From: Phormidium tenue FACHB-886
GTDB lineage: Bacteria; Cyanobacteriota; Cyanobacteriia; Elainellales; Elainellaceae
DNA: 64,000 nt
NCBI RefSeq assembly: GCF_014764505.1
Contig: NZ_JACXWX010000010.1
Location: forward strand, 24,001-88,000
Reading direction: 5' to 3'
The first letter of the stretch is position 1. Every line of letters starts with the position of its first letter. A program made the translations under genes and the position numbers. Positions 122 through 43,951 of the stretch are shown here, in pieces. The notes under the pieces were generated by a model. The model worked only from the letters and a program-made list of their open reading frames with translations. It was not told where the DNA came from and searched no databases.

Positions 122-1357
122 ATGAAAACCATCCTAATTTTGGAGTCTAATCCCAGACAGGATCTAGATTTAAACGAAGAAATTCGTGAGTTAACGAGTG
201 TCATAGAGCAGTCCAGAAATGGAGAACAATTTGACGTAAAGATTGCCTTAGCCGTGCGCCCCAAAGATCTACAAAAGCTGCTGCTCAAATATAAGCCACA
301 AATCGTTCATTTCTGTGGACATGGCACTGGCGAACAAGGCTTAGTTCTGCAGAACGATGCAGGACAAGAACAGCGAGTTACCACTGAAGCGCTTTCTGAT
401 TTGTTTGAGCTATTTGCTGAACAAATAGAATGTGTTTTGTTAAACGCCTGCTATTCCGACGTGCAAGCCAACGCGATCGCGCAACATGTTGAGTACGTAG
501 TGGGCATGAAGCAGGAAATCCAAGATGATGCGGCAATTGCTTTTGCAACTGGCTTCTATCAAGCCTTAGCGTATGGAGAATCAATCGAGCGAGCCTACAA
601 ATTTGGCTGCACCGAAGTTCACCTGACAATTTCTGGTGATTCGGCAGTTCGATCGATCGATACCCCGATCCGCAAGCTAGAAGCTATTGATGCTGTCGAA
701 AGAAAGTTAATACCAGAACATTTGCGGCCTGTTCTGACAGCGAAGCGGAGCTTGAAGAAGAGCATCACTAGCTCTGGAATAGATCTAGATCCTTCGCCTT
801 CACCAACCGTAAACACTTCATCGAATCCTAATGCTATACCAAAGCAAGAAGCACATAGGCAATTACAATTAACTCCTACAGATAACTTTCATGCAGCATC
901 AGCAATAGATTACACAAAACTGAAGAACTTGCTTCAAGCCGCGAACTGGAAAGCCGCAGAAGAAGAAACACTGAGCCTGATGCTAAGAGTCGCAAAGCGC
1001 GAACAGAAGGGTTGGCTAGGCGAAGCAGACATCAAAAATTTTCCCTGTGTTGACCTCAGCCAGATCAACGATCTCTGGAGCAGCCACAGCAGCAAGCGAT
1101 TTAGCTTCAGCGTTCAGAAGCAGATTTATTTAGAGTGCGGCAACAAACTTGACGGCAGGCACGACGAAGCTATTTGGCTTAGGTTTGCAGATCAGGTTGG
1201 ATGGCTTAAAGAAGGTAATCTAATATCCTATTCAGAAGTCACTTTTAGTAGCTCTAATCCATTGGGGTATTTCCCTTTCAGAATATACCGAGAGGGTTGT
1301 TTGCAGGTGGGTGCTTGTGCTTGGTGGGTGTTGCGCTTCCTTTCCTGTGGGCTTTAG
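122..1357 (+). CDS. CHAT-domain caspase-like protease fused to a GUN4 domain
   Basis: The 411-residue protein begins with a CHAT (caspase-HetF-associated) peptidase fold. The catalytic pair is visible as His67 in FCGHGTG and Cys110 in LLNACYSD. A low-complexity Ser/Pro linker (about 215-258) leads into a GUN4 domain (about 262-385) with the typical DYxxLxxLL, W-x-x-A-x-x-ET and LGYFPF signatures; GUN4 domains bind tetrapyrroles. CHAT proteases usually cleave a partner in defence, stress or cell-death systems, so a tetrapyrrole- or stress-sensing role is an inference. The last 20 residues are rich in Cys and Trp and do not look like a usual GUN4 end, so a 3' frameshift is possible. Small unknown proteins flank the gene on both sides and are candidate substrates. 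Confidence 0.85.
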   Translation: MKTILILESNPRQDLDLNEEIRELTSVIEQSRNGEQFDVKIALAVRPKDLQKLLLKYKPQIVHFCGHGTGEQGLVLQNDAGQEQRVTTEALSDLFELFAEQIECVLLNACYSDVQANAIAQHVEYVVGMKQEIQDDAAIAFATGFYQALAYGESIERAYKFGCTEVHLTISGDSAVRSIDTPIRKLEAIDAVERKLIPEHLRPVLTAKRSLKKSITSSGIDLDPSPSPTVNTSSNPNAIPKQEAHRQLQLTPTDNFHAASAIDYTKLKNLLQAANWKAAEEETLSLMLRVAKREQKGWLGEADIKNFPCVDLSQINDLWSSHSSKRFSFSVQKQIYLECGNKLDGRHDEAIWLRFADQVGWLKEGNLISYSEVTFSSSNPLGYFPFRIYREGCLQVGACAWWVLRFLSCGL

Positions 1358-2057: not shown

Positions 2058-3947
2058 CTACGATCGCAGCTGCTTTTGCATCTCCTCAGCATACTGGTCA
2101 GCATTCAGCCCGACCAGCAAATGCAGACGGTGATCCGGCAGCTTCATCACCCCCTGAACGCCGCTCGCCTTCAGCGCAGCTTCATTGACCGCGCTGTCAT
2201 CCGCCACTTCCACCCGTAGCCGTGTCAGGGCAGCAGGCTGCACGTTCAGAATATTGGCAGATCCACCCAGTGCGGCGATCGCGTCCTTGATTTTGCGGGC
2301 GGCTTCTGGATCACGCTGCACAACGGTTGAAGGAGCTGGCTTCGAATCTCGCTCTGAGACTGGCTCTGAGGAGGCAGGAGCCGAAACCGCTACTGGAGCC
2401 GTAGCACCCGTTCCGTTGCCAGTCGCGGCAGCAATTTCAGCCGCATTATCTTCAGGGACTTCTTCCAGATCGGCCCCTGTACTGCTTAGGTAGGTCAGCA
2501 TATCGGTTTTCAAGTTTTCCGATCGGGGACCAAAGATCGCCTGCGCATTGTTGCCCACTTCCAATACACCCGATGCCCCCAACTCCTTCAGACGAGCTTT
2601 GTTTACCTTCTTAATATCATTCACGCTAATTCGCAGCCGCGTGATACAGGCATCCAGCGTTTGGATGTTTTGGCGACCGCCAAACGCTTTTACCAGCTCC
2701 CGTGACATATCCGATGTATTCGTTGTGCTGCTGGTTTCAGCTATACCTTCGTCATCTTCTCGTCCGGGTGTCTTGAGGTTAAACCGTTTAATCGCAAAGC
2801 GGAAGGCAAAGTAGTACAGCGCAAAGAACAAAGGACCGAACGCCAAAATCAGCCACGATTTTGTACCCAGGCTATTGAACAGAAAGAAATCAATGAAACC
2901 ATGGGAGAACGTAAAGCCCATCTTGCCGCCCAGAATTTGAAACAGCCAGTCACAAAATCCGGCAATAAAAGCGTGAACCACATAGAGAGCAGGTGCAACA
3001 AACAAAAACGAAAACTCGATCGGCTCAGTAATCCCTGTGAGAAACGATGTGAAGGCGGCCGACACCATCAAACCGCCCACCCGTGCTCGGTTCTTAGGAT
3101 AGGCTGCATGCCACATGGCGATCGCTGCCCCCGGTAGCCCAAACATCTTGAACCAGTACGCACCGCCCAAAATACCTGCCGTAGGATCGCCCGCAAAAAA
3201 GCGGTTGATATCCCCCCGCACCACTTTGCCCGCCGCATCGGTAAACGACCCGATCTCAAAGAAGAAAGGCACGTTCCAGATATGATGCAAGCCAAACGGC
3301 AGCAGCGATCGCTCTACCACGCCATAGAGTGCAGCCGTCAGCGGCACATTATCCCCTGAAGCAGCAGAATTCGCTGCCGTCTGAATTACCCTACCGATCG
3401 GCGGCCAGATCACGCTCATAATCAGCGCGACCCCAATTGCGGCAAACGAAGTAACGATCGGCACAAACCGCTTACCCGCAAAAAAGCCAAGATACTGGGG
3501 CAGCTGAATCCGAAAATACTTGTTGAACAAATAAGCCGCCACGCAGCCCATAATCAAGCCGCCAAATACCCCCGTATCCAGCGAAGGAATCCCCATCACG
3601 GGCTTGAGGCTATCTGCTGGAACGCCCCATAGCGTCACCGATGCCCCGCCCAGCGCCGCCACAAAGACCGCAAAGCCAACGGTCGCCGCCAGCGCCGAAA
3701 CCCCATCATTTCCGGTAAAGCCGATCGCTACCGATACCGCAAAGATCAGCGGCAAGTTACTAAAAATAGCGTCGCCCGATCGCTTCATAATTTCTGCTAG
3801 AAACGCCGGCATCCAAAAAAACGTTTCTGGCTTACTAAACTTGGCGCTGCCCAAACCTAGCAATAATCCCGCGATCGGCAACACCGAGACCGGCAACATC
3901 AAGGACTTACCCATCTGTTGCAGCAAAGCAAACGATTTCTTCCACAT
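2058..3947 (-). CDS. ptsG: PTS glucose-type permease EIICB with an extra EIIB-like domain
   Basis: This inner-membrane sugar permease takes up and phosphorylates glucose. Residues 1-395 form the EIIC domain and closely follow what I recall of enterobacterial PtsG, including KSLMLPVSVLPIAGLLLG, PFGLHHIWNVP and the LTGITEPIEF loop. An EIIB domain follows (about 415-490) with the phosphorylated Cys434 in LDACITRLR. A third region (about 549-627) is a second EIIB-like fold in which Ala573 replaces the Cys (PAALTRLR), after an Ala/Pro-rich linker. At 629 residues it is longer than the usual PtsG of about 477. It lies 34 bases downstream of the EIIA-HPr-EI gene, so one transcript can supply the whole phosphorelay. 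Sugar PTS genes are rare in cyanobacteria, and acquisition by transfer is likely. Confidence 0.93.
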   Translation of the reverse strand: MWKKSFALLQQMGKSLMLPVSVLPIAGLLLGLGSAKFSKPETFFWMPAFLAEIMKRSGDAIFSNLPLIFAVSVAIGFTGNDGVSALAATVGFAVFVAALGGASVTLWGVPADSLKPVMGIPSLDTGVFGGLIMGCVAAYLFNKYFRIQLPQYLGFFAGKRFVPIVTSFAAIGVALIMSVIWPPIGRVIQTAANSAASGDNVPLTAALYGVVERSLLPFGLHHIWNVPFFFEIGSFTDAAGKVVRGDINRFFAGDPTAGILGGAYWFKMFGLPGAAIAMWHAAYPKNRARVGGLMVSAAFTSFLTGITEPIEFSFLFVAPALYVVHAFIAGFCDWLFQILGGKMGFTFSHGFIDFFLFNSLGTKSWLILAFGPLFFALYYFAFRFAIKRFNLKTPGREDDEGIAETSSTTNTSDMSRELVKAFGGRQNIQTLDACITRLRISVNDIKKVNKARLKELGASGVLEVGNNAQAIFGPRSENLKTDMLTYLSSTGADLEEVPEDNAAEIAAATGNGTGATAPVAVSAPASSEPVSERDSKPAPSTVVQRDPEAARKIKDAIAALGGSANILNVQPAALTRLRVEVADDSAVNEAALKASGVQGVMKLPDHRLHLLVGLNADQYAEEMQKQLRS

Positions 3948-3981
3948 AGTGTTTAGTGTTTATGACAGATTGAGTTGAGGG

Positions 3982-6564
3982 TTAGTCTTCTTGTGGTGAG
4001 TAGAGCGATCGCACTTCTGCGGCTGTGTTGCAGGCGATTGCTCTGGCAGCTAGCTCTCGACACTGCGCCAAGCTGAGTTCACGCACCTGCGCCTTAACAC
4101 TGGGAATAGTGGGAACGCTGACGCTGAGCTCCTTCACGCCCAAGCCGATCAGCAGCGGCACGGCATGTGGATCGCTGGCAATGCCGCCGCAAACTCCCGT
4201 CCATTTGCCCTGTTGATTGGCTGCCGCTGCCGCCATCCCAATCAGCTTCAGCACAGCCGGATTCAAGCCATCGCAGAAGGGCGCGAGTTTCGGATGTCCC
4301 CGATCCATTGCCAAGGTGTATTGGGTCAAGTCGTTCGTGCCGACCGAGAAGAAATCTACCTCTTTGGCAAACTGCTCCGCCATGACGGCAGTCGCCGGAA
4401 TCTCGACCATAATTCCCACTCCAACGGGCGCAACACCTAGCTTCTGGCGTTCCTCTTCCACAACCGCTTTCGCAAGGCGAAATTCCTCCAGCGTGGCAAT
4501 CATCGGAAACATAATCTTGACGTTGCCAAACGTGGATGCCTTGAGAATGGCCCGGACTTGCGTTCGCAAAATCTCCGGGCGATCGAGCCCAATCCGAATG
4601 CCGCGTTCTCCCAAAAATGGATTCTCTTCATGGGGCATCGGCAGATAAGGCAAGGGCTTATCGCCGCCCACGTCCAGCGTCCGAATAATCAGCGGACGAT
4701 CGCCCATCGCCTTAGCAATGTCCGTGTAAATCTGCGCCTGCTCTGCCTCAGACGGTGCATCTGCCCGATCGAGAAAGATAAACTCCGATCGCAATAGCCC
4801 CACACCTTCTGTGCCCAGCTCGATCGCCTTTTGCGCCTCTGCAAGGCTGCCAATATTCGCCACAATCTCCATCGCCTGCCCATCTGTCGTTACAGCAGGC
4901 TGATGCGTAACACTGAGTTCTCGTTCCCGTCTTGCCTTCAGCCGAACTTGCCGCTGCCGCACCTGCTCCATTTCCGTCGGGTCAGGATTAACGCGCAGTG
5001 CGCCTTTGCTGCCATCTAAAATCACTGGGGTTCCATTGGGTAAGTCCAGCACACGGGGTTCAGTGCCAGCGATCGCGGGCAGATCCATTGCTCGTGCCAA
5101 AATCGACACATGCGAAGTGGCGCCGCCGCCCACGGTACAAAAGCCCAGCACTCGCCCCCGATCCATCGTTGCCGTATCAGAAGGCGACAAATCTTCTGCC
5201 ACCAGAATGGCATTCGGCGGATACTCGATCGCCTCCGCCACGGTACCCGTAAGAACTCGCAGCACCCGACCGCCCACATCCCGCAGATCGTTTGCTCTTG
5301 CCGCCAGCAGTTCGTTTTTAAGCTGTGCTAGCTGCTCTGCCTGCCCGGTATAAGCCTGCTTCCAAGCAAACGCTGCACTTTTGCCTCTGTCAATCGCGCT
5401 GATTGCCGCATCAAACAGCTCCGGGTCTTCCAGTAGCTCCTGATGCGCTGCAAAAATTGCCGCCTTACCCGCATCTGCCTGTCCCTGCACTTTGGCTCTT
5501 AGAGCCTCTATTTCTAGCCGCGCTTGGGCGATCGCCTTTTCCAACTGCTGCCGCTCTTGGCTAGGATTTTGCGCCGTTTCTGCCACGCTAATGTCCTGAT
5601 GGGCGATCCGATACACATTGCCCACTGCCACACCCGGAGATGCCGCCACACCCAAAATCAGATTCGGATCAGTTGAGCGGGGACGCGGTGCCGGAGCCGC
5701 CACTTCCGATACGGCAACGCTCGCTGGAGCCGCAATCGGCTTTGAGCCTGCTTCCCCCAATCCCGACCGAATCGCTTCCGTCAGTTCAGCAATCGCTGCG
5801 TTAGCATCTTCACCCGTGGCAGTCAGATAAACTGTACTTCCCCGCTCCACCTGCAGGCTCATCACGCTCACCACACTCCGGACATTTGCCTGCTTGTCGC
5901 CCAGCTTGATCCGAATGTCTGATTGATATTTTTTAGCTAAATTTGCCAGCACCGCCGCCGGACGAGCGTGCAGCCCCGTAGGATTGGGAATGGCGATCGC
6001 CTCTGAAGTCACGGCTCGGGCAACCGAGCCACCGTTCGCTTGAACTGTATTGACTGACTGTCCGCCCACTGGCTGTGCACCCGCCAGCCTCAGCTCCAGC
6101 GCCACATCCTGCCCTGCTATCACATCTCCTGTCTGTGGTGCAAACTGCCCCACCACCTCGCCATTCGTAATTACAATCTGCGTTAACAGACTGCGGGCGT
6201 GAGTGGCAACATAATCTGCATCAAACTCGATCAGCGGATCGCCCGCCCGGACGCGATCGCCCACCCGCACCTGCGCCTCAAACCCTTCACCGCGCAGCAT
6301 GACGGTATCTAGCCCAATGTGAATCAGCACTTCCACGCCTTCTGGTGATCGAACCGTCACGGCATGGCGAGACGGATGCAGCTGAATGACCTCTCCATCG
6401 CAAGGAGCCACCAGCGTTTGGCTGATTGGGTCAATTGATACGCCATCCCCCACCATTTTCTCGGCAAACACCGGATCGGGCACATTCTCAATATTGACTA
6501 GCCGTCCCGATAGGGGGGCAACCAGCGCAAGACTCGCTTTTGCTGGCGTAGCAATGTACGTCAT
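3982..6564 (-). CDS. PTS multiphosphoryl transfer protein (EIIA-Glc / HPr / enzyme I fusion)
   Basis: This cytoplasmic protein carries the whole soluble phosphorelay from PEP to the sugar permease. Residues 8-160 are an EIIA of the glucose (Crr) type with His67 and the phospho-accepting His82 in VLIHIGLDTV. Residues 187-268 are HPr with His199 in PTGLHARPA. From about 302 to the end is enzyme I, with the phospho-His485 in GGATSHVSILARAMD and the PEP-binding barrel motifs GLLRSEF, LDVGGDKP, MVEIPA and TGVCGGIASD. It resembles NagF-type fusions by domain order, but the partner is PtsG-like. At 860 residues all active histidines are present, so it should work. It is the first gene of the two-gene PTS operon; no linked regulator is visible. 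Confidence 0.95.
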   Translation of the reverse strand: MTYIATPAKASLALVAPLSGRLVNIENVPDPVFAEKMVGDGVSIDPISQTLVAPCDGEVIQLHPSRHAVTVRSPEGVEVLIHIGLDTVMLRGEGFEAQVRVGDRVRAGDPLIEFDADYVATHARSLLTQIVITNGEVVGQFAPQTGDVIAGQDVALELRLAGAQPVGGQSVNTVQANGGSVARAVTSEAIAIPNPTGLHARPAAVLANLAKKYQSDIRIKLGDKQANVRSVVSVMSLQVERGSTVYLTATGEDANAAIAELTEAIRSGLGEAGSKPIAAPASVAVSEVAAPAPRPRSTDPNLILGVAASPGVAVGNVYRIAHQDISVAETAQNPSQERQQLEKAIAQARLEIEALRAKVQGQADAGKAAIFAAHQELLEDPELFDAAISAIDRGKSAAFAWKQAYTGQAEQLAQLKNELLAARANDLRDVGGRVLRVLTGTVAEAIEYPPNAILVAEDLSPSDTATMDRGRVLGFCTVGGGATSHVSILARAMDLPAIAGTEPRVLDLPNGTPVILDGSKGALRVNPDPTEMEQVRQRQVRLKARRERELSVTHQPAVTTDGQAMEIVANIGSLAEAQKAIELGTEGVGLLRSEFIFLDRADAPSEAEQAQIYTDIAKAMGDRPLIIRTLDVGGDKPLPYLPMPHEENPFLGERGIRIGLDRPEILRTQVRAILKASTFGNVKIMFPMIATLEEFRLAKAVVEEERQKLGVAPVGVGIMVEIPATAVMAEQFAKEVDFFSVGTNDLTQYTLAMDRGHPKLAPFCDGLNPAVLKLIGMAAAAANQQGKWTGVCGGIASDPHAVPLLIGLGVKELSVSVPTIPSVKAQVRELSLAQCRELAARAIACNTAAEVRSLYSPQED

Positions 6565-6760
6565 GATGGTCTCCTGATTTTTCTTTTAGATCAATTCTTA
6601 AAATGAGCAGTCATGTAGCTTGCAAAAAACACTGCATCTCTTTAACTTTTTCATTTGCGTTTTAACGGCAAAACAACGTTCCTCAATTCATCTCCTTCTT
6701 CGCAAAAATTTATTAAAATTTATGTAGCGCCATTTGTTCAATTGCTGAATTTTTTCTGAT

Positions 6761-28551: not shown

Positions 28552-28670
28552 TCCGCCTCCTATTAGCTGCATAACCCTTTGCGCACAAAATATTGCTGTA
28601 TTTATCTGGAACCCTGTTTGTCCCACCCTAGTCTGTAGCAACAGTAACAACAGCGTTCTTGGAAGAGATT

Positions 28671-29894
28671 ATGCGGCAAGCGTTGGCGATCGGGTTTTTG
28701 GCAATGGTAATGACGGGGAGCGGGGTTCCTCTTGCCGCTTTGCCATCCCAGGCTGACGGCGTGCTCTCTAGCAATCCAGCCCCAAGTAGCCCTGTCACGA
28801 ATAGCCCAGCCGTCGACAGCCCAAGCGCTGATAGTTCGAGCGATGACACGAACGCTATCCTTGCCAGTCGGGATGCGTTTTATTTCAGCAGTCGGGGGTT
28901 TCGGTTCGTACTGCCCAGCAGCTATACGCTTGAAGATGCAACAGAGTCGATCGCAGGACAGGCAAACGCGCCCTTGCAACTGCTGCAGCTTTGGCAGCAA
29001 AAAGACTTTGTGAATCGAGAGAACCTGCCCGAATCGCCGCCGCTCATTCGGATCTATATTTACGATAATTCGCAGCAGCTACCCCTCACAGATTGGAAAG
29101 ATGAGCTGAGCCGCGCTGACGATCGAGCCGTAACCGTTGCAGGACAGCCAGGGATTGCCTACAGCGCTACCGGACTGTATGACTCCGATAATGTTTTGTT
29201 TAAGAGCTTAGACGATCGCTATGTGGTTCGCATTCAAGGTGGTTATCTCGATCGCAACGATGAAATCCTTCAGACATTTCAGGTGGTTGTTCAGAGTTTT
29301 AGCTTCGATATACTGCCGAGTGCAACTGCTTCACCCCGCATCAACTATAGTCGTCTCCAAAGTTTGCTAGAAAATCATAGCTGGCAAGCTGCTGATGTGG
29401 AAACGCGGGGCATCTTACAGCGATTGGCAGACGGGAAAGATTATCTCTATAGCAGTGCTACCTGGCTCAATGAAATTCCCTGCGAAGATTTGGAGACGAT
29501 CGACACCCTGTGGTCGGAGGCAAGCGACGGCAGATTTGGCTACGCGGCACAGCGTCGGCTTTGGCAGCAAACCAGCGGCAGCGCAAACAGCCGGGTGGAA
29601 CAGTTTGGACAGCAAGTGGGATGGCGGGCACAGCCGTCTGCATCTGGAACAGAATTATTTGAAACCGGATGGAAATCGGACATCGAGCTAGTGCCAACTG
29701 CCGAAGCACCGATCGGTCAGTTTCCTTGGGTTGGAGTTTCTTCTAGCGCCTTGACCGATTTTCTCAACACGCCAGGGTGTGGTAGCTGCACGATCGACAT
29801 GCTTTACCTGAAAGGCGATCGGTTCTATCACTACTTGCCCGCCCTTTTCACCAAACTGGAGAGCTGCGCCAACCCCACGGCTGCCCAAAAATAG
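28671..29894 (+). CDS. Exported protein with a C-terminal GUN4 domain
   Basis: The ATG at 28671 has GGAAG ten bases upstream and opens a signal peptide (MRQALAIGFLAMVMTGSGVPLAA), which rules out the upstream TTG. A Ser/Pro/Asp-rich linker (about 30-62) leads to a beta-rich domain (about 66-213) beginning FYFSSRGFRFVLPSSY that resembles PsbP-like lumenal folds. A GUN4 domain follows (about 224-400) with INYSRLQSLLENHSW, the ADVET signature, SEASDGRFGYAAQRR and APIGQFPW. The GUN4 domain binds porphyrins in chlorophyll synthesis; a signal peptide would place this one in the lumen or periplasm, which is unusual. Convergent with gyrB. Confidence 0.82.
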   Translation: MRQALAIGFLAMVMTGSGVPLAALPSQADGVLSSNPAPSSPVTNSPAVDSPSADSSSDDTNAILASRDAFYFSSRGFRFVLPSSYTLEDATESIAGQANAPLQLLQLWQQKDFVNRENLPESPPLIRIYIYDNSQQLPLTDWKDELSRADDRAVTVAGQPGIAYSATGLYDSDNVLFKSLDDRYVVRIQGGYLDRNDEILQTFQVVVQSFSFDILPSATASPRINYSRLQSLLENHSWQAADVETRGILQRLADGKDYLYSSATWLNEIPCEDLETIDTLWSEASDGRFGYAAQRRLWQQTSGSANSRVEQFGQQVGWRAQPSASGTELFETGWKSDIELVPTAEAPIGQFPWVGVSSSALTDFLNTPGCGSCTIDMLYLKGDRFYHYLPALFTKLESCANPTAAQK

Positions 29895-29955: not shown

Positions 29956-31977
<2,022 letters not shown>

Positions 31978-32083
31978 TCAAGGCGGTTTTACGCCAGTCT
32001 GAGAAGAGGTTCCAACAGGGGATGGATCGGTGATGGATCTACGCAATCGATTGCATGAGTGCCAACAGGCTTTGATATGACTG

Positions 32084-33031
32084 ATGTGGGATGGTGTTGT
32101 GGAAGAAATTAATACATTTGTATCAGGCCCTCCTGTCTCTATTCTAATCGTGATTTGTGGGGCAACAGCAACAGGTAAATCAGGCTTAGCGATCGCCTTA
32201 GCTGAACGGCTACAAGGAGTCATCCTCAGCGCCGACTCCCGCCAAGTGTATCGCGAGTTTGACATTGGCACTGCAAAACCTTCAATTGCCGATCGGCTGC
32301 GGGTTCCCCATTATCTGATTGATATCTGCGATCCCACAGAAACGCTAACGCTAGCAGACTACCAGCAGCAAGCGCAAAGCATAATCGGCACAGGGGGGCT
32401 ACCGCTGCTGGTAGGCGGCACCGGGCTTTACATCCGCTCGATCGTCCGAGGGTTGCTCATCCCCCGGGTAGCTCCGCAGCGAGAGCTACGATTGCAGCTG
32501 CAGCAGCTCGGGCAGCGGCAGTGCTATAGCTTTTTGCAACAGGTAGACCCGATCGCCGCCCAGAAGATTCACCCAAACGATCAGGTACGGACGCTGCGGG
32601 CGTTGGAAGTGTTTTATGCCACGGGCAAGCCAATTTCTGTACAGCAAGGGGAAGTTCCACCGCGCTATCCAATTTTGCAAATTGGGCTGGATTGCCCTGA
32701 TCTAGATGCGCTGGAGCGGCGGATTCAGCAGCGGACTGCCCAAATGCTGGAAGAGGGATTTGTGGAAGAGGTGGAAGCGCTCTGCCAGAAATACGGTGCA
32801 GATCTGCCGCTTTTGAACACGTTGGGCTACCAAGAAATGAAGCAATATTTGGCTGGAGAAATCTCTCTGGCTGAAGCCGAAGCGCTGACCGTCCTGCATA
32901 CCCGCCAGTTTGCCAAACAGCAGCGCACTTGGTTTCGAGCCGATGAGACGATCGACTGGTTTGATGCCGATGTGCCAGATCTGTTGGAGCAAGTTTGGGC
33001 GCGGCTGCAGCAGTTTTTGGACAAAGCCTGA
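32084..33031 (+). CDS. miaA: tRNA dimethylallyltransferase
   Basis: MiaA transfers the dimethylallyl group of DMAPP to A37 of tRNAs that read UNN codons. The P-loop is GATATGKS, followed by the substrate-recognition ILSADSRQVYREFDIGTAKPS and the HYLIDI motif. Also visible are LVGGTGLYIRSIVRGL, HPNDQVRTLRALEV and the basic RQFAKQQRTWFR tRNA-binding segment. The 315-residue length is typical. DMAPP comes from the MEP pathway that includes IspH above. It is transcribed divergently from gyrB and followed by ackA. Confidence 0.97.
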   Translation: MWDGVVEEINTFVSGPPVSILIVICGATATGKSGLAIALAERLQGVILSADSRQVYREFDIGTAKPSIADRLRVPHYLIDICDPTETLTLADYQQQAQSIIGTGGLPLLVGGTGLYIRSIVRGLLIPRVAPQRELRLQLQQLGQRQCYSFLQQVDPIAAQKIHPNDQVRTLRALEVFYATGKPISVQQGEVPPRYPILQIGLDCPDLDALERRIQQRTAQMLEEGFVEEVEALCQKYGADLPLLNTLGYQEMKQYLAGEISLAEAEALTVLHTRQFAKQQRTWFRADETIDWFDADVPDLLEQVWARLQQFLDKA

Positions 33032-33118
33032 GGGCGCTGTGGTTTGCCAAACTGCGGCGAGCGCAAATTTTCGGCACACTAGGGAAGATGCCATACCGAG
33101 TTGCAAAGTGAACTGCCC

Positions 33119-34336
33119 ATGAAAATCTTAGTGCTGAATGCAGGATCGAGCAGCCAGAAAAGCTGCCTCTACGACATTGCTGCGCTACCCGACCAGCCGC
33201 CTGAGCCGCTCTGGGAAGCCCAGATCGACTGGACGCATCAGCAGGGCGTGGCAGAAGTGAAGGTAAAAACGATCGCCGGGGCATCCCTCCAAGAAACCAT
33301 TCCGTTTGAGTCACCAACGCCCGTGATGGAGTGGATGTTTAACACCCTTTGGAGCGGTGAAACACAAGTCATCGACAGTCCCGCAGCGATTGGGGGCGTA
33401 GGGCATCGGGTGGTTCACGGGGGGCATTTCTATGCCGATAGCGTACGAATAACGCCCGGAGTCAAGGACATGATCGAGCGGCTCTCTGCCCTCGCGCCAG
33501 TCCACAATCCGGTTAACCTGGAAGGAATCAAGGCGATCGAGCAGATTTTAGGTGCAGCCATTCCCCAAGTTGCTGTGTTTGATACTGCCTTTCACGCCCA
33601 AATGCCTGATGCAGCCACTGCCTACGCCATTCCCTATGAGCTAACTGAGCAGGGCATTCGTCGCTATGGGTTTCACGGCACCAGCCATCGCTATTGTGCA
33701 GAACGCACCGCCCAGATCCTCAATCAGCCGATCGACGATCTACGAATCGTCACCTGTCACTTGGGCAATGGCTGCTCGCTGGCTGCCATTCAAAAGGGAC
33801 GCAGCGTAGATACCACAATGGGCTTTACGCCGCTGGATGGGCTGATGATGGGCAGTCGATCGGGATCGGTTGACCCCAGTATTTTGCTGCACCTGATGCG
33901 GCAGGAAGAGTACACGGTCGATCAGCTAGATACAATGCTGAATCGCAAGTCCGGTCTGCTGGGTGTATCAGGTGTCTCGAACGATATGCGGCGGGTGATG
34001 GAGGCGATCGAGCAGGGCAACGAGCGGGCTCAGCTTGCCCTGGATGTTTATATTCACCGTCTGCGGAGCGGCATTGGCGCGATGATTGCTACGCTGGGTG
34101 GTTTGGATGCGTTGGTGTTTACGGCAGGCGTAGGTGAGAATGCTCCGAATGTACGGGCGGCTGCCTGCGAAGCCTTTGCCTACATGGGCTTGCAGCTAGA
34201 CTTGCAAAAGAATGCAAACCATCCCCACGATCAGGTGATTTCGGCTGACGGCTCCACGGTTAAAGTGCTGGTGATCCACACGCAGGAAGATTGGGCGATC
34301 GCCAAAGCCTGCTGGGAGGTTGTCAGAACCGCCTGA
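33119..34336 (+). CDS. ackA: Acetate kinase
   Basis: AckA interconverts acetyl phosphate and acetate with ADP/ATP. I start at ATG 33119 where the fold begins (MKILVLNAGSSSQKS). Family motifs are complete: VGHRVVHGGHF, DTAFHAQMP, RYGFHGTSHRY with the catalytic His/Arg, HLGNGCSLAA, LMMGSRSGSVDPS, GVSNDMRRVM and FTAGVGENA. At 405 residues it is normal. No phosphotransacetylase gene is adjacent. Together with the PTS it fits fermentation or overflow metabolism, but that is inference. Confidence 0.96.
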   Translation: MKILVLNAGSSSQKSCLYDIAALPDQPPEPLWEAQIDWTHQQGVAEVKVKTIAGASLQETIPFESPTPVMEWMFNTLWSGETQVIDSPAAIGGVGHRVVHGGHFYADSVRITPGVKDMIERLSALAPVHNPVNLEGIKAIEQILGAAIPQVAVFDTAFHAQMPDAATAYAIPYELTEQGIRRYGFHGTSHRYCAERTAQILNQPIDDLRIVTCHLGNGCSLAAIQKGRSVDTTMGFTPLDGLMMGSRSGSVDPSILLHLMRQEEYTVDQLDTMLNRKSGLLGVSGVSNDMRRVMEAIEQGNERAQLALDVYIHRLRSGIGAMIATLGGLDALVFTAGVGENAPNVRAAACEAFAYMGLQLDLQKNANHPHDQVISADGSTVKVLVIHTQEDWAIAKACWEVVRTA

Positions 34337-34455
34337 AGGAGTAGCTGGATGGGTTTCGAGCAAACCCCGCCAAACCCATAGAAATATTTCACAGTCCTTG
34401 GACTGGCTGTTGATCCTGCTATCTTTAACACTCGTCCTCTTTGAGCCACTGAACC

Positions 34456-35436
34456 ATGAGTACATCCCCTCGTATTAAAACCATCTACACCGACGGAGCC
34501 TGCTCTGGCAATCCGGGTCCAGGCGGCTGGGGAACCGTGGTCTACTTTGAGGATGGCTCGGTGCATGAAATGGGTGGTGCAGCTGCCCAAACCACAAACA
34601 ACCGCATGGAAATTCAAGCGGCGATCGCTGCGCTCGACTATCTGCTTGCCTCCGGGGAAACCCAGCCTGTGTCGCTCTACACCGACAGCGAATATGTCAA
34701 AAACGGCATTACCAAATGGGTGACGGGCTGGAAGCGCAAAGGCTGGAAAACTTCATCTGGGGCGGCTGTCCTCAACCAGGACTTGTGGGAAACGCTCGAT
34801 CGGCTCAACCAGAAGGTAATGCGGCAGACGACTCTGCAGTGGCAGTACGTGCGAGGGCATTCAGGTGATGTGGGCAACGATCGCTGCGACACGATCGCCC
34901 GTGGCTTTTCCCTCAGCTCGCCGCCAGCCTTGCGTCAGCAAACCAACGGTGCTGCGGCTAGCTCTCTGACAAACTCTGCAATCGACTCTGCGACAGGCGA
35001 CCTAGAAGAGGAGCTTGCCTCCGCGAGTGTGGCTACGTCAGATTCTTCCCCCCTTCCCCCGTCTTCCTCATCCCTCGAATCTGCCTCTTACATCACCAAT
35101 TCCCCTAGTTCTGAGGCGATACAATCCAAACACGGAACTACTGCAACAGAGACGATCATGGTCAATTCAACCAGTTCAACGCTTAACGATGCCTCTGATT
35201 TGCCGCGCGAGGTGAGGGTAGCTCAGCTCCGCAACATGGTAGAAACACTGCAAATTGCCGACGAGATCGCGGCGAAAGGCTATCTGATTACCAGTGCCGA
35301 ACTGGCAGATTTAATGGATGTAAACGCTAGCGCGGTGACAAGCCGAGGGGATAACTGGGTCTGGCGAAACTGGGTGGTGTCACGGGTGCGGCGAGAAGGC
35401 AACCAGATTTTGTGGCAGCTAGAGCGGGTGGACTAA
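34456..35436 (+). CDS. rnhA: Ribonuclease HI with a C-terminal cyanobacterial domain
   Basis: Residues 7-150 are RNase HI, which cuts RNA in RNA-DNA hybrids. The catalytic residues are visible: Asp13 (YTDGACSGNPGPGGW), Glu52 (TNNRMEIQA), Asp77 (YTDSEYV), His135 and Asp142. A low-complexity Ser/Thr linker (about 165-240) follows. The final 75 residues form a compact domain (LRNMVETLQIADEIAAKGYL, SAELADLMDVNASAVTSRGD, WRNWVVSRVRREGN) that looks like a winged helix and could bind nucleic acid. I recall this tail in other cyanobacterial RNase H proteins. The role of the tail is unknown. Confidence 0.92.
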   Translation: MSTSPRIKTIYTDGACSGNPGPGGWGTVVYFEDGSVHEMGGAAAQTTNNRMEIQAAIAALDYLLASGETQPVSLYTDSEYVKNGITKWVTGWKRKGWKTSSGAAVLNQDLWETLDRLNQKVMRQTTLQWQYVRGHSGDVGNDRCDTIARGFSLSSPPALRQQTNGAAASSLTNSAIDSATGDLEEELASASVATSDSSPLPPSSSSLESASYITNSPSSEAIQSKHGTTATETIMVNSTSSTLNDASDLPREVRVAQLRNMVETLQIADEIAAKGYLITSAELADLMDVNASAVTSRGDNWVWRNWVVSRVRREGNQILWQLERVD

Positions 35437-35852
35437 ATCCAATTGCTCCAAATTCAAGCGCTATCGAAGGCATTTTTTTAAATTTGATCAAAACCTTAAT
35501 CATTTTGTCTGGAAAAATAGCTCCAGATTTAGAGTTTTATGGCATTCTATACGCAACACCTAGTAGAGTCTCATTCCCGCTTCAAAGATAAGCATTGAGT
35601 CTGGTTTCCTTGAGAAGCTTATACAGCACGCTTTTCAGGCAAAACGATCGAGCTTTTGGGGGATGGCTGCCTGCTTGAGCGATCGAGGAGTGTTTTGGCG
35701 GAGTTGAGGGCTAGTTCGGTTCTATAGAATCAAGCGGATTAGCAAGATTAAATGTGGATTTTTGCTGAGAGGTCTTATATTTAATCGAGCCAGCCTGCTG
35801 CGAATGGTTATGGGGCTGTGTGTAGTTGTGCGATCGGCGATAGAGGTGAGCA
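35437..35852. other. 416-bp spacer upstream of dnaA
   Basis: It should contain the dnaA promoter. I looked for DnaA boxes (TTATCCACA type) and found only weak matches, such as TGTGGATTT near 35752. There is no cluster, so a replication origin cannot be claimed here. Confidence 0.5.
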
Positions 35853-37229
35853 GTGGAAACTAGCCTAGACAGCTTTTGGGAGCAGGTGTTGGAGCGACTT
35901 CAGCTCCAGCTTAGCCGCCCCACGTTTGAAACCTGGATCAAGCCAGCGATGGCAGAACGGCTTGAGAAAAATAGCCTGGTTATCTGCACGCCAAACCCCT
36001 TCGCCCGCAACTGGCTGCAAAAATACTACGTCAAGGCGATCGCCGATGTGGTGCAGGAGATTTTGGGCTACCCGGTCGAAATTCACATCACCGTTAAACC
36101 GGGAGCTGCCTCCGAAGCAGCCGACAGCACAGAAATGATGTGGTCGATGCCTACACCTGCCGCAGAGCCTGCCCCCGCCCAGCGCCCGCGCCATTCTGAT
36201 CTCAACCCTAAGTCGGTCTTCTCTCGCTTTGTGGTTGGCTCTAATAACCGCATGGCGCACGCTGCTTCGCTGGCGGTGGCAGAGTCACCGGGACGCGAGT
36301 TTAACCCACTGTTTCTGTGCGGTGGCGTTGGGTTGGGCAAAACCCACTTGATGCAGGCGATCGGGCACTATCGGCTAGAAATTGACCCCGCCTCTAAGAT
36401 TTTCTACGTCTCGACAGAAAAGTTTACCAATGACCTGATTGCTGCCATCCGCAAAGACAGCATGCAGAGCTTCCGGGAGCATTACCGGGAGGTGGATGTG
36501 CTGCTGGTAGATGATATTCAGTTCATTGAGGGAAAGGAGTACACGCAGGAAGAATTCTTTCACACGTTCAACACGCTGCATGAAGCCGGCAAGCAGGTGG
36601 TGCTGGCGTCCGATCGCCCCCCCAGCCAAATCCCCCGCCTGCAAGAGCGGCTGTGTTCGCGCTTCTCAATGGGGCTAATTGCCGACATTCAGGCGCCCGA
36701 TTTGGAGACGCGTATGGCGATTCTGCAAAAGAAAGCAGAGTATGACAACATTCGCCTGCCGCGCAATGTGATCGAATACATTGCCTCAACTTACACCTCC
36801 AACATCCGGGAGCTGGAAGGCGCACTGATTCGAGCGGTTGCCTACACTTCGATCTCAGGGCTATCGATGACGGTAGAAAATATTGCGCCGGTGCTGAATC
36901 CGCCTAGCGAGCAGGTGGAAGCCTCGCCGGAAACGGTAATGACGGCAGTGTCGGAGACTTATAATGTGTCGATCGAAGACCTAAAAAGCAATTCCCGCCG
37001 CCGCGAGATCAGCGTCGCTCGGCAGATTGGCATGTTTTTGATGCGGCAGCACACAGATTTGAGCCTGCCCAAAATTGGTGAGGTATTCGGCGGCAAAGAC
37101 CACACAACGGTGATGTATAGCTGCGAGAAAATTACGCAGCTCAAGAATACCGATCCAGATCTAGCGCGAAATTTGCGGCAGTTGAGCGATCGAATTAGTT
37201 TTTCCAACCAGGCTCAGTCGCGGAAGTAG
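35853..37229 (+). CDS. dnaA: Chromosomal replication initiator protein DnaA
   Basis: DnaA is the AAA+ protein that opens oriC. The start is GTG (35853) with AGAGGTGA upstream, giving the usual cyanobacterial beginning [19 protein letters not shown]. Domain I (about 1-80) and a Pro/Ala-rich domain II (about 84-118) precede domain III with Walker [10 protein letters not shown] at 157-165, Walker [14 protein letters not shown] and box [16 protein letters not shown]. Domain IV ends the protein with the DNA-binding signature [15 protein letters not shown]. Its 458 residues are typical. The neighbours are not dnaN or recF, as is common in cyanobacteria. Confidence 0.98.
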
Positions 37230-40277: not shown

Positions 40278-41372
40278 TCAGAGGATTTCTTCTAAAATGA
40301 AAGCGCTGTAAAAGAAGGCTTTGTCTTGAGCATGGAGCATTTGTGCTAACTCGGATAGGGGCTGGAGCTGATGCGCCATTTCGGGGGGGCGCGATCGCTG
40401 CACCAACATATTCCAGTACGCCAACCGTCCACCCTTACGTCCGGCTTTGATTAACTGCTGCAGGAGAGCGTGATAGCGATCGGGTGAAAGATACTCAAAA
40501 ATATCGCTGAGATTGTAGCGATCGATAGCATTCTCTCCGGCTTGCGCCAAATAATCTTCGATTGAGGTATGATGCCATTCCAGCCGATCTAGATTATTGC
40601 GGATCGCCTCAAAGTTCTCTGGACGGAGAGCATAAGGTAGCGCAGCAGTATACTCTCCGGTAAGAATCCATTGTAGATAGGGGTTTTCGGCGGGATTAAG
40701 CTGCGTCAAGGCAAACTCAGTTCGGCTAAGGATGCGATCGGCTACACTACCCTGAACATACTTAAAGAAGCTCGGATCGCGTCCGGCTCGTCCCATCACG
40801 ACGCGAGAAAAGAAAATCCGAAACAGTAAACGCCACCGCCATGTATCCCAGCATTGGTCATAGAACGTTTCGCGCTGCGCGGCCGTGCCGCCCTTGAGCA
40901 ACTGATTGACTAGGGTGCGATCGTGAATCAGCGGCAGAATGCGCCTTCTGAATAGGGCGAAGTATCGCTCAAATTTGCCAGCTCCACCAATACCCCGATC
41001 GACTTCAACGCTGTTGAGATCCCAAAAATAGCGTGCTTCTGCAGAAAGCTGGCTGCGGCAACGCTGATAGAGCGGCTGTCGCTCGCCTGGTTTTGCGCCA
41101 ATTAAGATTAAGAGTTCTGAGTGGTTCAGTTCACGATAGGCGGCAACTCGTAGCTCTAAGCAGGCAAGCTGAGCAGCGCTTAAATCTATGGCGATGACTC
41201 GCTCCGGGTTCTGGCTCAGTAAAGCGAGCGTATTGTCTCCTGCCGATGCGATGGATAGACAAGTATCACCAGGTTGAATAGCGAGCGCCTTGAGCAGGAT
41301 ATCTGTATCCTCCCAGCATTGGGCATAACGAATATATGAAAACTTAGCGTGATTGCTCACTTCACTGGACAT
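40278..41372 (-). CDS. DUF3419 protein, BtaA-like SAM:3-amino-3-carboxypropyl transferase
   Basis: The 364-residue soluble protein matches DUF3419, the family of BtaA, which moves the aminocarboxypropyl group of SAM onto diacylglycerol in betaine-lipid synthesis. The start QCWEDTDILLKALAIQPGD, the SAM-binding glycine loop SIASAGDN (40-47) and the acidic VIAIDLSAAQLACLELR are clear. The C-terminal SDIFEYLSPDRYHALL and GGRLAYWNMLV fit the Rossmann core. It overlaps the dikinase gene by 16 bases, indicating coupled translation. No BtaB-like N-methyltransferase is present, so the product is not simply a betaine lipid. Confidence 0.88.
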   Translation of the reverse strand: MSSEVSNHAKFSYIRYAQCWEDTDILLKALAIQPGDTCLSIASAGDNTLALLSQNPERVIAIDLSAAQLACLELRVAAYRELNHSELLILIGAKPGERQPLYQRCRSQLSAEARYFWDLNSVEVDRGIGGAGKFERYFALFRRRILPLIHDRTLVNQLLKGGTAAQRETFYDQCWDTWRWRLLFRIFFSRVVMGRAGRDPSFFKYVQGSVADRILSRTEFALTQLNPAENPYLQWILTGEYTAALPYALRPENFEAIRNNLDRLEWHHTSIEDYLAQAGENAIDRYNLSDIFEYLSPDRYHALLQQLIKAGRKGGRLAYWNMLVQRSRPPEMAHQLQPLSELAQMLHAQDKAFFYSAFILEEIL

Positions 41373-43951
41373 GAGAAATTCTCTACTTGCGATACGCTGC
41401 TTTCAATTCGTTGAATTGAACCCGTGCTACCGTTCATTTCCACCCAATCGCCATCCTTGAGCAATCGCGTGATGCCCGAAATCGAAACAATTGCCGGAAT
41501 GCTCATCTCACGGGCAACGATCGCCGCATGGGAAAGGACGCTGCCTCGCTCCACCAGCAGCCCAGCTGCAGCCGGGAACAGCAAAATCCAACCCGGATCA
41601 GTTCGTTCTGCCACAAGGATGTGACCGGGCTGAATCTGGACAGTGTGTGGGTTGGTGACGATCTGCACCGGGGCACGAACTACACCCGGACAGCAGCCTG
41701 TTCCTTGCAGGTGGGCGGGTGATCCTGCAACAGAGAAAGAAAGGATGGGAGAGAGCGGGTGAACAGCGCCGCGCGTAGAGAAGCGATCGTGGGGAGCAGA
41801 CATGGCACTGTAGCGCCGAAATTCGGCTCGTCGAATATTAATCAGCCCTGGCAAATCGGTGCAGGTCGTTGTACCTTCCACAAACCCGAGGACTTCATCT
41901 AGATTCAAATAGAAGATGTCTTTAGGATGTCCAAGTATATCGAGTGCATAAAAGCGTTTGCCAAGCTCTACCATGATCCGGCGAACGCGACCGAAAACCC
42001 GAGTGCGCTCAAACCGCAGATTCTCACGATCGCGCACTCTAGCTCTAGCATTTTGCAGCACCCAGTTGAAAATAGATTGCTTAACCGGATTGGCTTTGAG
42101 TGCATCTTTCACTTTCGCTTCAGCTTCAGAGCGGCAGGTAGAAGGTTGACCAGATTGGAGACAGTCCTGCCGCTGTGCCAATTGTCCAATCGATCGCAGC
42201 AGCAGCAGTGGATTGTCCTGAAGCGTTTCGCTTTCTAGCTTTAGCTCCTCGAGGCAGCGATCGCCAAATTTCTCCAGGTAGGCGTCGTACTGAATTTGGA
42301 AGGCTAGAAATCTGGGAATTTCCCGCAGAATTTCTGGCAAGGAGCCATGACAGAGAAGCTGCACAAAGCAGGTATCACGGGCGATGGTGGCTGCCATCTG
42401 GCGGATTCGCTGGGCCGGTTCAGCGCTGATGATGCCACCTTCGCCGCTGATCAGATCGTTCTGCAAAGTGCCATTGCCGTCATCGCACCACCGTGCCGTT
42501 AGCTTCCGCAACACCCCATAAAAAATCATGGCAAAAAAATCATTGACCAGCGGCGCATCCCAGTGCGTTAACAGCTGCCGTTCAAGCTGGCGGTAGTGGG
42601 CAACCAGCTCATCCGGACGCAAGCTTGTCAGCAGTATTTCTGAGGAGGCACTAGCAGATCGATCTGCCAAAGCGGCATTAAGCCGTTGATAAAAGCGATG
42701 AATTTGGCGCGGTAAGGTAACATAGTTCTTCAGCAGCCCGACGATCGCGCTGGCAAGCCGCAGGCTGTCCTGCACTTTGGCGCTTAGACTGGCTTGCTCG
42801 ATGGTACGCAGCACCTCGATCGGCAGATCTTCCCGAACACCCATCATCTGTTCCATAAAGCGGCGGTTGACGGTAAATCCGGGCAGCAGTGCCAGCACTC
42901 GATACCAGTTGAGCAAGTTATAGTAAATCCGTCCCTGTACTAAGCCCAACATGCAGCGGAACGTTGCATCCTGACGATCGATCACAGCTTCAGAAACTCC
43001 CATCAGTCGGCAAAACTGACGATATACCGCTTCATACGCCTGTTGAGCGAAGGAGAAGGTGAGCGGGGTAGTTACGCCGCCATAGCTTTCAGCGATATTG
43101 CTGTTATCCCAAATCTGTAGCACGCCGTCTGGATCAGATAGATTTTTTAGGGTTGTAATTGGTCGTGCTTGTAGTAGGTAAAGATTTTCTGCTTCAATTG
43201 CCCATTCAATATCTTGTGGTCGCCCTAACTGCTGCTCGACTCGGCGAGCCAGCGTAGCAACTGCTCGGATCTCCTCATCTGTGAGAATTGCCGCTTGCGC
43301 TTCATCTCCCCGAGAAATTTCGCCATTTCGATCGACCTCCCACGTTCTCCCCTCCTGCGCTCCAGACACCAGCGCTTCGCCCAGACCACACACCGCCGAA
43401 ACCACAGCAGTCCCCCGCTGACCTGTGACCGGATTAGCGCTAAAAGCAACCCCTGCCGCCTCTGGCTGAACCATTTTTTGGATCAGTACAGCAGGCGGAC
43501 TGGGCAACTGCATCAGCTGATGGTCTTGGCGGTAAGCAAGCAGCCGATCGGCAAACCCCGATCGCCAAACGGCAACCACTTTTTGTGCCACATCTGAAAT
43601 TGCCACATTTAGAAAACTATCGAGCTGTCCTGCAAAGGAGTGCCGAACGCCATCTTCTTCCAGAGCAGACGATCGAACTGCAACAAGTTCCCCTTGAGGG
43701 CAAAGGTGCATCAAAGCTTGGGAGAGCTGAAACAGCACCAATGCGCTGGGCTGAACGTCTGTCAAGCTGTATTCGCCTGCTGCAATCTGCTGGCGTTGGA
43801 GGTCTGTCAGGCTGTTGTCAAAGGCAGCAGGAGACAAAACGAACCAGTCGGGCACTGGCATGGAGGAAGCCAGCTGAGCCAGAATGCTGGCCTTTCCACC
43901 GAATTGAGAGGCGGAATTACTGAAGTCTTTCGCGTAAAAAATATAGTTCAT
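41357..43951 (-). CDS. PEP-synthase-related dikinase with rifampin-phosphotransferase-like architecture
   Basis: The 864-residue protein has an ATP-grasp (PPDK_N) N-terminus (about 1-270) with AVRSSALEEDG, QKMVQPEAAGVAFSANPVTGQ and EWAIEAENLYLLQARPI. A long helical middle (about 290-745) follows. The C-terminal swivelling domain carries the phospho-His808 in GSVLSHAAIVAREMSIPAI. The PEP-binding TIM barrel of PEP synthase and PPDK is missing. This is the plan and length of rifampin phosphotransferase, which uses ATP to phosphorylate a hydroxyl group of a bound small molecule. I infer that it phosphorylates an intermediate of this operon. The start overlaps the UbiA gene by four bases (ATGA). 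Confidence 0.88.
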   Translation of the reverse strand: MNYIFYAKDFSNSASQFGGKASILAQLASSMPVPDWFVLSPAAFDNSLTDLQRQQIAAGEYSLTDVQPSALVLFQLSQALMHLCPQGELVAVRSSALEEDGVRHSFAGQLDSFLNVAISDVAQKVVAVWRSGFADRLLAYRQDHQLMQLPSPPAVLIQKMVQPEAAGVAFSANPVTGQRGTAVVSAVCGLGEALVSGAQEGRTWEVDRNGEISRGDEAQAAILTDEEIRAVATLARRVEQQLGRPQDIEWAIEAENLYLLQARPITTLKNLSDPDGVLQIWDNSNIAESYGGVTTPLTFSFAQQAYEAVYRQFCRLMGVSEAVIDRQDATFRCMLGLVQGRIYYNLLNWYRVLALLPGFTVNRRFMEQMMGVREDLPIEVLRTIEQASLSAKVQDSLRLASAIVGLLKNYVTLPRQIHRFYQRLNAALADRSASASSEILLTSLRPDELVAHYRQLERQLLTHWDAPLVNDFFAMIFYGVLRKLTARWCDDGNGTLQNDLISGEGGIISAEPAQRIRQMAATIARDTCFVQLLCHGSLPEILREIPRFLAFQIQYDAYLEKFGDRCLEELKLESETLQDNPLLLLRSIGQLAQRQDCLQSGQPSTCRSEAEAKVKDALKANPVKQSIFNWVLQNARARVRDRENLRFERTRVFGRVRRIMVELGKRFYALDILGHPKDIFYLNLDEVLGFVEGTTTCTDLPGLINIRRAEFRRYSAMSAPHDRFSTRGAVHPLSPILSFSVAGSPAHLQGTGCCPGVVRAPVQIVTNPHTVQIQPGHILVAERTDPGWILLFPAAAGLLVERGSVLSHAAIVAREMSIPAIVSISGITRLLKDGDWVEMNGSTGSIQRIESSVSQVENFSCPVK

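What the first reader, a model, noticed from the sequence alone, without database searches (positions are those of the whole stretch)
2058..6564. Complete glucose PTS in a cyanobacterium
Two adjacent genes encode every step: EI, HPr and EIIA in one fusion and a PtsG-type EIICB. All phospho-accepting residues are present. Cyanobacteria generally lack sugar PTS and use permeases such as GlcP. The EIIC domain is very close to enterobacterial PtsG. Horizontal acquisition and a photoheterotrophic or mixotrophic lifestyle are plausible.
Basis: partly seen in the sequence, partly recalled or inferred. Interest (0 to 1): 0.7.

Follow-up and report, generated by a model that had tools for sequence, protein, structure and literature searches.

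The report
Glucose PTS in many filamentous cyanobacteria
This photosynthetic bacterium carries a complete E. coli-like machine that imports glucose and phosphorylates it in the same step; about one in eight sampled cyanobacterial species has it too, so it is a largely inherited and mostly overlooked trait rather than a recent import from gut bacteria.

Summary
Window 3982-6564(-) encodes an EIIA(Glc)-HPr-EI fusion and 2058-3947(-) a glucose-type EIICB, 34 bp apart. All four phospho-histidines, the EIIB cysteine and every E. coli IICGlc glucose contact tested are present; NagE-type paralogues differ at two of these.

The interpretation needs three corrections. (1) It is not a cyanobacterial oddity: 46 of 390 sampled Cyanobacteriia genomes carry the glucose EIICB over its curated cut-off, and 88 of 390 carry an Enzyme I. 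The cyanobacterial sequences are one clade that mostly follows rpoB, so recent horizontal acquisition is not supported. An ancient transfer stays open, with Burkholderiales and Kiritimatiellota carrying the same layout. (2) The genome has three PTS: glucose (here), GlcNAc (nagE-nagB-nagA) and fructose. The window fusion holds the only Glc-family EIIA, so NagE must use it. (3) The transporter is IIC-B-B': a second IIB domain, predicted to be folded, has alanine at the catalytic cysteine in all 38 cyanobacterial sequences where it could be read.

Glucose uptake is inferred, not shown. A role for B' is unknown. Literature on cyanobacterial PTS is sparse: Nostoc azollae has one, and a 2008 survey called the phylum PTS-free.

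The parts
3982..6564 (-). EIIA(Glc)-HPr-EI fusion (multiphosphoryl transfer protein), 860 aa, first gene of the pair
   Evidence: Pfam/NCBIfam domains over cut-off; aligns with E. coli Crr (42%), HPr (35%) and EI (42%)
6157..6525 (-). EIIA(Glc) domain (aa 14-136), phospho-His H82, accessory His H67; the only EIIA_1 domain found in the genome
5767..6003 (-). HPr domain (aa 188-266), phospho-His H199
4003..5658 (-). Enzyme I domain (aa 303-854), phospho-His H485, R628, C792
2058..3947 (-). Glucose-type EIICB-B' permease, 629 aa, 34 bp downstream of the fusion
   Evidence: TIGR02002 684.5 bits over the 591.8 cut-off; best Foldseek match E. coli PtsG
2958..3911 (-). EIIC membrane domain (aa 13-330 as matched by Pfam) with the E. 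coli glucose contacts E202 R203 H211 H212 N215 K257 G295 T297 E298; F337 and S338, conserved too, lie at aa 347-348 just outside this stretch
   Evidence: contacts from PMC11393339
2481..2717 (-). Catalytic EIIB domain (aa 411-489), Cys434
2064..2303 (-). Second EIIB domain, B' (aa 549-628); Ala573 in place of the catalytic Cys; predicted with the same order of secondary-structure elements as the first, block pLDDT 88-94
6571..6575 (-). AGGAG ribosome-binding-site-like sequence just before the ATG of the fusion gene
   Evidence: sequence read directly; CAGGAGA also precedes the start in L041 and L074

Best explanation
A two-gene operon encoding a self-contained PEP:glucose phosphotransferase system. 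Enzyme I takes phosphate from PEP and passes it through HPr and EIIA within one fusion protein, then to Cys434 of the first IIB domain, which phosphorylates glucose as the IIC elevator domain carries it in. The product, glucose-6-phosphate, would feed the oxidative pentose phosphate pathway and glycogen, giving light-independent or mixotrophic growth on glucose. The same fusion very probably also serves the unlinked GlcNAc permease NagE, because it carries the genome's only Glc-family EIIA. The C-terminal B' domain cannot carry phosphate on cysteine and is probably structural or regulatory. The pair is an old possession of several mostly filamentous lineages, inherited largely vertically with many losses. 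Shown: the sequences, residues, distribution, gene order and trees. Inferred: activity, substrate in vivo, NagE coupling, the role of B', physiology.
For: Domains and curated models. Catalytic residues invariant in the clade. All 11 E. coli IICGlc glucose-contact positions tested are identical in the window, while NagE-type proteins have Asn at 202 and Met at 257. Three EIIC genes (one Glc, one Nag, one Fru type) and only two EIs in the genome; one EIIA_1. The pair is adjacent in nearly every relative whose upstream DNA is held. Monophyly of the cyanobacterial EIICBs and congruence with rpoB. AlphaFold model matches E. coli PtsG and isolated IIB structures.
Against: No uptake, growth or expression data. 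In several relatives nagB and nagA sit beside the pair (L031/L061, L034, L039, L052, L065), and a NanE-like epimerase and a glucokinase lie just left of the window, so amino sugars could be part of the substrate range. A glucokinase nearby suggests that free glucose also arises inside the cell. Presence is patchy: 20 of 36 same-family genomes including the window's.
Confidence: 0.85

Rival explanations
1. It is a NagF/NagE-type system whose real substrate is N-acetylglucosamine (or glucosamine), as in Ralstonia eutropha, where the same domain layout (EI-HPr-EIIA fusion plus EIIBC) takes up GlcNAc.
For: Same set of domains as R. eutropha nagF/nagE (PMC3222305); nagB/nagA beside the pair in five relatives; NanE-like gene adjacent to the window's left end.
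Against: Scores as glucose and below the GlcNAc cut-off. Glucose-contact residues E202 and K257 are kept even where nag genes are adjacent (L034, L039). The genome has a separate NagE next to nagBA that does pass the GlcNAc model (660.7 bits). EIICB falls outside the NagE clade (100/100). Glucosamine, which E. coli PtsG can also carry (general knowledge), is not excluded.
Confidence: 0.08
2. A recent horizontal import from a proteobacterium into this cyanobacterial lineage.
For: The same pair, with a cysteine-less B', is on Caballeronia and Paraburkholderia megaplasmids at 52-54% identity; patchy presence in cyanobacteria.
Against: Cyanobacterial EIICBs are one clade with 100/100 support and mostly follow rpoB; the window's nearest relative is Drouetiella hepatica at 82%; GC3 is like that of the neighbours.
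Confidence: 0.05
3. The pair is mainly a regulatory phosphorelay (a carbon or PEP/pyruvate sensor) with transport secondary.
For: Conserved non-phosphorylatable B' domain; EIIA(Glc) and HPr are regulators in other bacteria (general knowledge).
Against: The IIC substrate site is fully conserved, which a pure regulator would not need. No HPr kinase was found, though that search also missed B. subtilis, so it is weak.
Confidence: 0.04
4. Contaminating heterotroph DNA binned with a cyanobacterium.
For: The assembly has 3.54% estimated contamination.
Against: The same contig carries GUN4-domain genes; the closest homologues are in other cyanobacterial assemblies, including single-contig genomes G002 and G008 and the isolate Leptolyngbya sp. 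PCC 7375.
Confidence: 0.01

Closest known systems
Escherichia coli PtsG (IICB-Glc) with Crr, HPr and EI
   Same: Same reaction chain, all glucose contacts and phospho-sites conserved, 54% identity over IICB
   Different: EIIA, HPr and EI are one protein here; an extra cysteine-less B' domain follows IIB; separate clade
Caballeronia/Paraburkholderia EIIA-HPr-EI plus glucose-type EIICB-B' pair
   Same: Same fusion order, same gene adjacency, same Ala-bearing B'; 52-54% identity; PMC8231600 infers glucose PTS uptake in most Caballeronia
   Different: Another phylum, on megaplasmids; no experimental test known to me
Ralstonia eutropha NagF/NagE GlcNAc PTS
   Same: Self-contained fusion plus EIIBC layout independent of general EI/HPr
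   Different: GlcNAc substrate; NagE-type proteins examined here have Asn202 and Met257 (E. coli numbering). The R. eutropha sequence itself was not available
Fructose PTS of Nostoc azollae and other cyanobacteria (PMC2900214, PMC10095879)
   Same: PTS in a cyanobacterium; this genome also has a fructose PTS
   Different: Different EII family and, in this genome's fructose system, a different EIIA (EIIA_2) in the fusion
E. coli FruA IIB'-IIB-IIC (from general knowledge)
   Same: Carries a duplicated, phosphorylation-incompetent IIB' domain
   Different: Unrelated IIB family; B' is N-terminal there, C-terminal here

Membership tests
Glucose-specific PTS IIBC (TIGR02002 / PtsG) | Score over the curated cut-off of the equivalog model | tested here: met
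   684.5 vs 591.8 bits
Glucose-specific PTS IIBC (TIGR02002 / PtsG) | Glucose-contact residues of the E. coli IICGlc structure | tested here: met
   11 of 11 positions identical
Glucose-specific PTS IIBC (TIGR02002 / PtsG) | Phosphorylatable IIB cysteine | tested here: met
   C434; 40 of 40 cyanobacterial sequences
Glucose-specific PTS IIBC (TIGR02002 / PtsG) | PEP-dependent glucose uptake | not testable with these tools
   needs an uptake assay
N-acetylglucosamine PTS IIBC (TIGR01998 / NagE) | Score over the curated cut-off | tested here: not met
   500.8 vs 553.2 bits; the separate C35 protein does pass
N-acetylglucosamine PTS IIBC (TIGR01998 / NagE) | Groups with NagE in the EIICB tree | tested here: not met
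   NagE clade separated 100/100
Multiphosphoryl transfer protein (EIIA-HPr-EI) | All three domains in one ORF with their phospho-histidines | tested here: met
   H67/H82, H199, H485, invariant in 29 of 29
Recently transferred gene | Closest relatives outside the host lineage, discordant with a species marker | tested here: not met

The most novel reading that the evidence does not exclude
An ancient cyanobacterial glucose PTS clade whose permease keeps a folded but cysteine-less second IIB domain as a non-phosphorylatable regulatory module (for example a sensor of the EIIA phosphorylation state or an anchor for a transcription factor), coupling external sugar to photosynthetic carbon metabolism, with the window's fusion as a hub that also drives GlcNAc uptake.
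Probability: 0.2. Interest if true: 0.7.

Novelty: new member of a known kind. Interest (0 to 1): 0.45.

Why it matters
Cyanobacteria are usually described as lacking the PTS: a 2008 survey says it is absent from the phylum (PMC2405797) and a 2023 review of cyanobacterial heterotrophy does not discuss it (PMC10515406). Here roughly a fifth of sampled species carry an EI and an eighth a glucose EIICB. That makes growth on glucose predictable and testable in cultured strains such as Leptolyngbya sp. PCC 7375 and Planktothrix PCC 11201, and raises the question of how a phototroph pays for sugar import with PEP. The conserved cysteine-less IIB' domain is an unexplained feature shared with Burkholderiales and a Kiritimatiellota genome.

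Tried and rejected
Mutual exclusion of glucose PTS and GlcP-type permeases: rejected. 6 of 51 PTS carriers also have a TIGR00879 porter over cut-off, against 36 of 390 overall (Fisher p 0.45); only the best three candidates per genome were scored in that search. NagF/NagE reading: rejected on model score, residues and tree. Conserved link with glucokinase/NanE: not seen next to the pair in the relatives examined, within the flanks held. HPr kinase: none found, but the control missed B. subtilis, so inconclusive. Upstream motif shared with L041 and L074: little beyond the ribosome-binding site. Search for close relatives in the wider phylum of the Kiritimatiellota hit: only 2 of 195 genomes over cut-off, so that lineage looks like a sporadic carrier. 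Ten literature searches: no paper describing a glucose PTS in these lineages was found in the open-licence library. Laying the whole genome in the Python box was not possible. Two 411-aa ORFs in the window looked like a duplicate but are unrelated.

Full report
WHAT IS THERE. The two reported ORFs exist at the stated coordinates on the minus strand, 34 bp apart. The upstream gene (3982-6564) is an EIIA(Glc)-HPr-EI fusion; the downstream gene (2058-3947) is an EIIC-EIIB permease with a second EIIB stretch. NCBIfam places the permease in the glucose equivalog TIGR02002 (684.5 bits, cut-off 591.8) and below the GlcNAc equivalog TIGR01998 (500.8, cut-off 553.2). A GUN4-CHAT gene next door and a second GUN4-domain gene in the window fit a cyanobacterium, and the closest relatives by rpoB and EIICB are Drouetiella hepatica and an Oscillatoriophycideae MAG.

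IS IT INTACT. EIIA H67/H82, HPr H199, EI H485, R628 and C792 align with E. coli Crr, HPr and EI; the four phospho- or accessory histidines and R628 are invariant in 29 of 29 homologous fusions, and C792 in 28 with one unread position (that set includes the Kiritimatiellota fusion). EIIB C434 is present in 40 of 40 cyanobacterial EIICBs. The AlphaFold model (mean pLDDT 79) matches E. coli PtsG best.

SUBSTRATE. The E. coli IICGlc cryo-EM paper lists the glucose contacts (PMC11393339). All eleven positions tested are identical in the window protein and in every cyanobacterial glucose-type homologue sampled in that alignment, whereas the NagE-type proteins have Asn for E202 and Met for K257. This holds also for L034 and L039, where nagB and nagA lie beside the pair. 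Glucose is therefore the best call, but it rests on sequence. Glucosamine as a second substrate cannot be excluded.

THREE PTS IN ONE GENOME. PF02378 finds three EIIC genes: the window, contig C35 and contig C201. C35 carries nagE-nagB-nagA with a GlcNAc-specific EIICB over cut-off (660.7 vs 553.2) and no EI or EIIA in the 19 kb read. C201 carries a full fructose operon: EIIA(Fru)-HPr-EI, fruK, and EIIBBC. There are two EIs and only one Glc-family EIIA, the one in the window. NagE must therefore draw phosphate from the window's EIIA (inference). A NagE over the GlcNAc cut-off occurs in only 3 of 390 sampled cyanobacteria, all in this family. No MFS sugar porter (TIGR00879) reaches cut-off in this genome.

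DISTRIBUTION. In an even draw of 390 Cyanobacteriia genomes, an EI N-domain occurs in 91 (88 over cut-off) and a glucose EIICB in 52 (46 over cut-off; one of the 52 is a marginal hit). In the window's own family it is 20 of 36, including the window's genome and leaving the marginal hit out. 42 genomes have an EI but no glucose EIICB; the best-scoring of these EIs are of the fructose type. Named carriers include Leptolyngbya sp. PCC 7375, Adonisia turfae, Nodosilinea spp., Planktothrix spp., Stenomitos frigidus, Aphanothece hegewaldii and Chroococcus sp. FPU101. The fusion lies upstream of the EIICB in nearly every locus with enough DNA, with nagB-nagA (and nagE) between them in L034 and L061; L042 is an exception, with unrelated genes upstream of its EIICB.

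DESCENT. The 40 cyanobacterial EIICBs form one clade (100/100) apart from E. coli, Aeromonas, Burkholderiales, Verrucomicrobiota/Kiritimatiellota and NagE. Outgroup sampling is thin and the clade's sister is unresolved. For 28 cyanobacteria, the EIICB and rpoB trees share 15 of 25 splits, including the clade of the window with L041 and L074; most conflicts involve weakly supported branches, the clearest being the L061+L069 pair (98/99 vs 86/87 in rpoB) and the grouping of Planktothrix with Aphanothece/Chroococcus (99/98 in rpoB, not recovered). The EI tree also keeps the cyanobacterial fusions together (94/98), with Kiritimatiellota and then Burkholderiales next (100/99, 96/94). Codon composition is like that of the neighbours. 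Mostly vertical inheritance with losses, and perhaps a few transfers within cyanobacteria, fits best. The origin of the clade, ancestral or by ancient transfer, is open.

THE SECOND IIB DOMAIN. Residues 549-628 repeat the secondary-structure order of the first IIB domain and are predicted with block pLDDT of 88-94. The catalytic cysteine is alanine in all 38 cyanobacterial sequences where it can be read, while the following TRLR motif is kept; mean conservation is 0.65 against 0.31 for the linker and 0.83 for the first IIB. Three Burkholderiales proteins and the Kiritimatiellota protein L076 also lack Cys at that position; the Verrucomicrobiota protein shows no readable second motif. The NagE of this genome keeps Cys in both IIB copies, whereas NagE of L031 has Ala in the second. 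So a cysteine-less second IIB is a shared old feature of this type of permease, and its role is unknown. E. coli FruA's IIB' is the nearest analogy I can name, from memory.

WHAT WAS KNOWN. Comas et al. [quoted passage not shown] The Nostoc azollae genome paper reports a PTS 'lacking in most cyanobacterial genomes' (PMC2900214), and a 2022 review cites a fructose IIC protein in the same organism (PMC10095879). The 2023 review on cyanobacterial heterotrophy mentions GlcP and Frt but no PTS uptake (PMC10515406). A glucose PTS transporter is inferred from genomes in most Caballeronia (PMC8231600), and a pair of the same domain layout is a GlcNAc PTS in Ralstonia eutropha (PMC3222305). Only open-licence papers could be searched.

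VERDICT. Real and intact; ordinary as biochemistry; under-recognised as cyanobacterial biology. Not a recent horizontal gain. The most distinctive leads are the cysteine-less IIB' domain and the shared phosphoryl hub with NagE.

Noticed in passing
L026:4948-8768 (genome contig C35): nagE-nagB-nagA cluster: a GlcNAc PTS permease without its own EI or EIIA in the 19 kb read; only 3 of 390 sampled cyanobacteria have such a NagE over cut-off.
   Followed up: partly
L027:8295-13697 (genome contig C201): Complete fructose PTS operon: EIIA(Fru)-HPr-EI fusion, 1-phosphofructokinase and EIIBBC with Cys in both IIB motifs.
   Followed up: partly
L028:6720-10073 (just left of the window): Sugar-binding protein, glucokinase and NanE-like epimerase next to the PTS; not found next to the pair in the relatives examined.
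   Followed up: partly
L080-L089, L097: EIIA(Fru)-HPr-EI-like fusions in family f32 that are only 42-46% identical to this genome's fructose fusion, possibly a distinct cyanobacterial fructose PTS group.
   Followed up: no
window 122-1357 and 28659-29894: Two GUN4-domain proteins, one fused to a CHAT (caspase-like) domain.
   Followed up: no
window 41357-43951: 864-aa protein with two PPDK_N stretches and a PEP-utiliser mobile domain but no PEP-binding C domain, a possible phosphotransferase of unusual build.
   Followed up: no
window 29956-37229: gyrB, acetate kinase and dnaA within 8 kb.
   Followed up: no
L075, L077, L071: EIIA-HPr-EI fusion broken into several frames in some MAGs; could be sequencing error or decay.
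   Followed up: no
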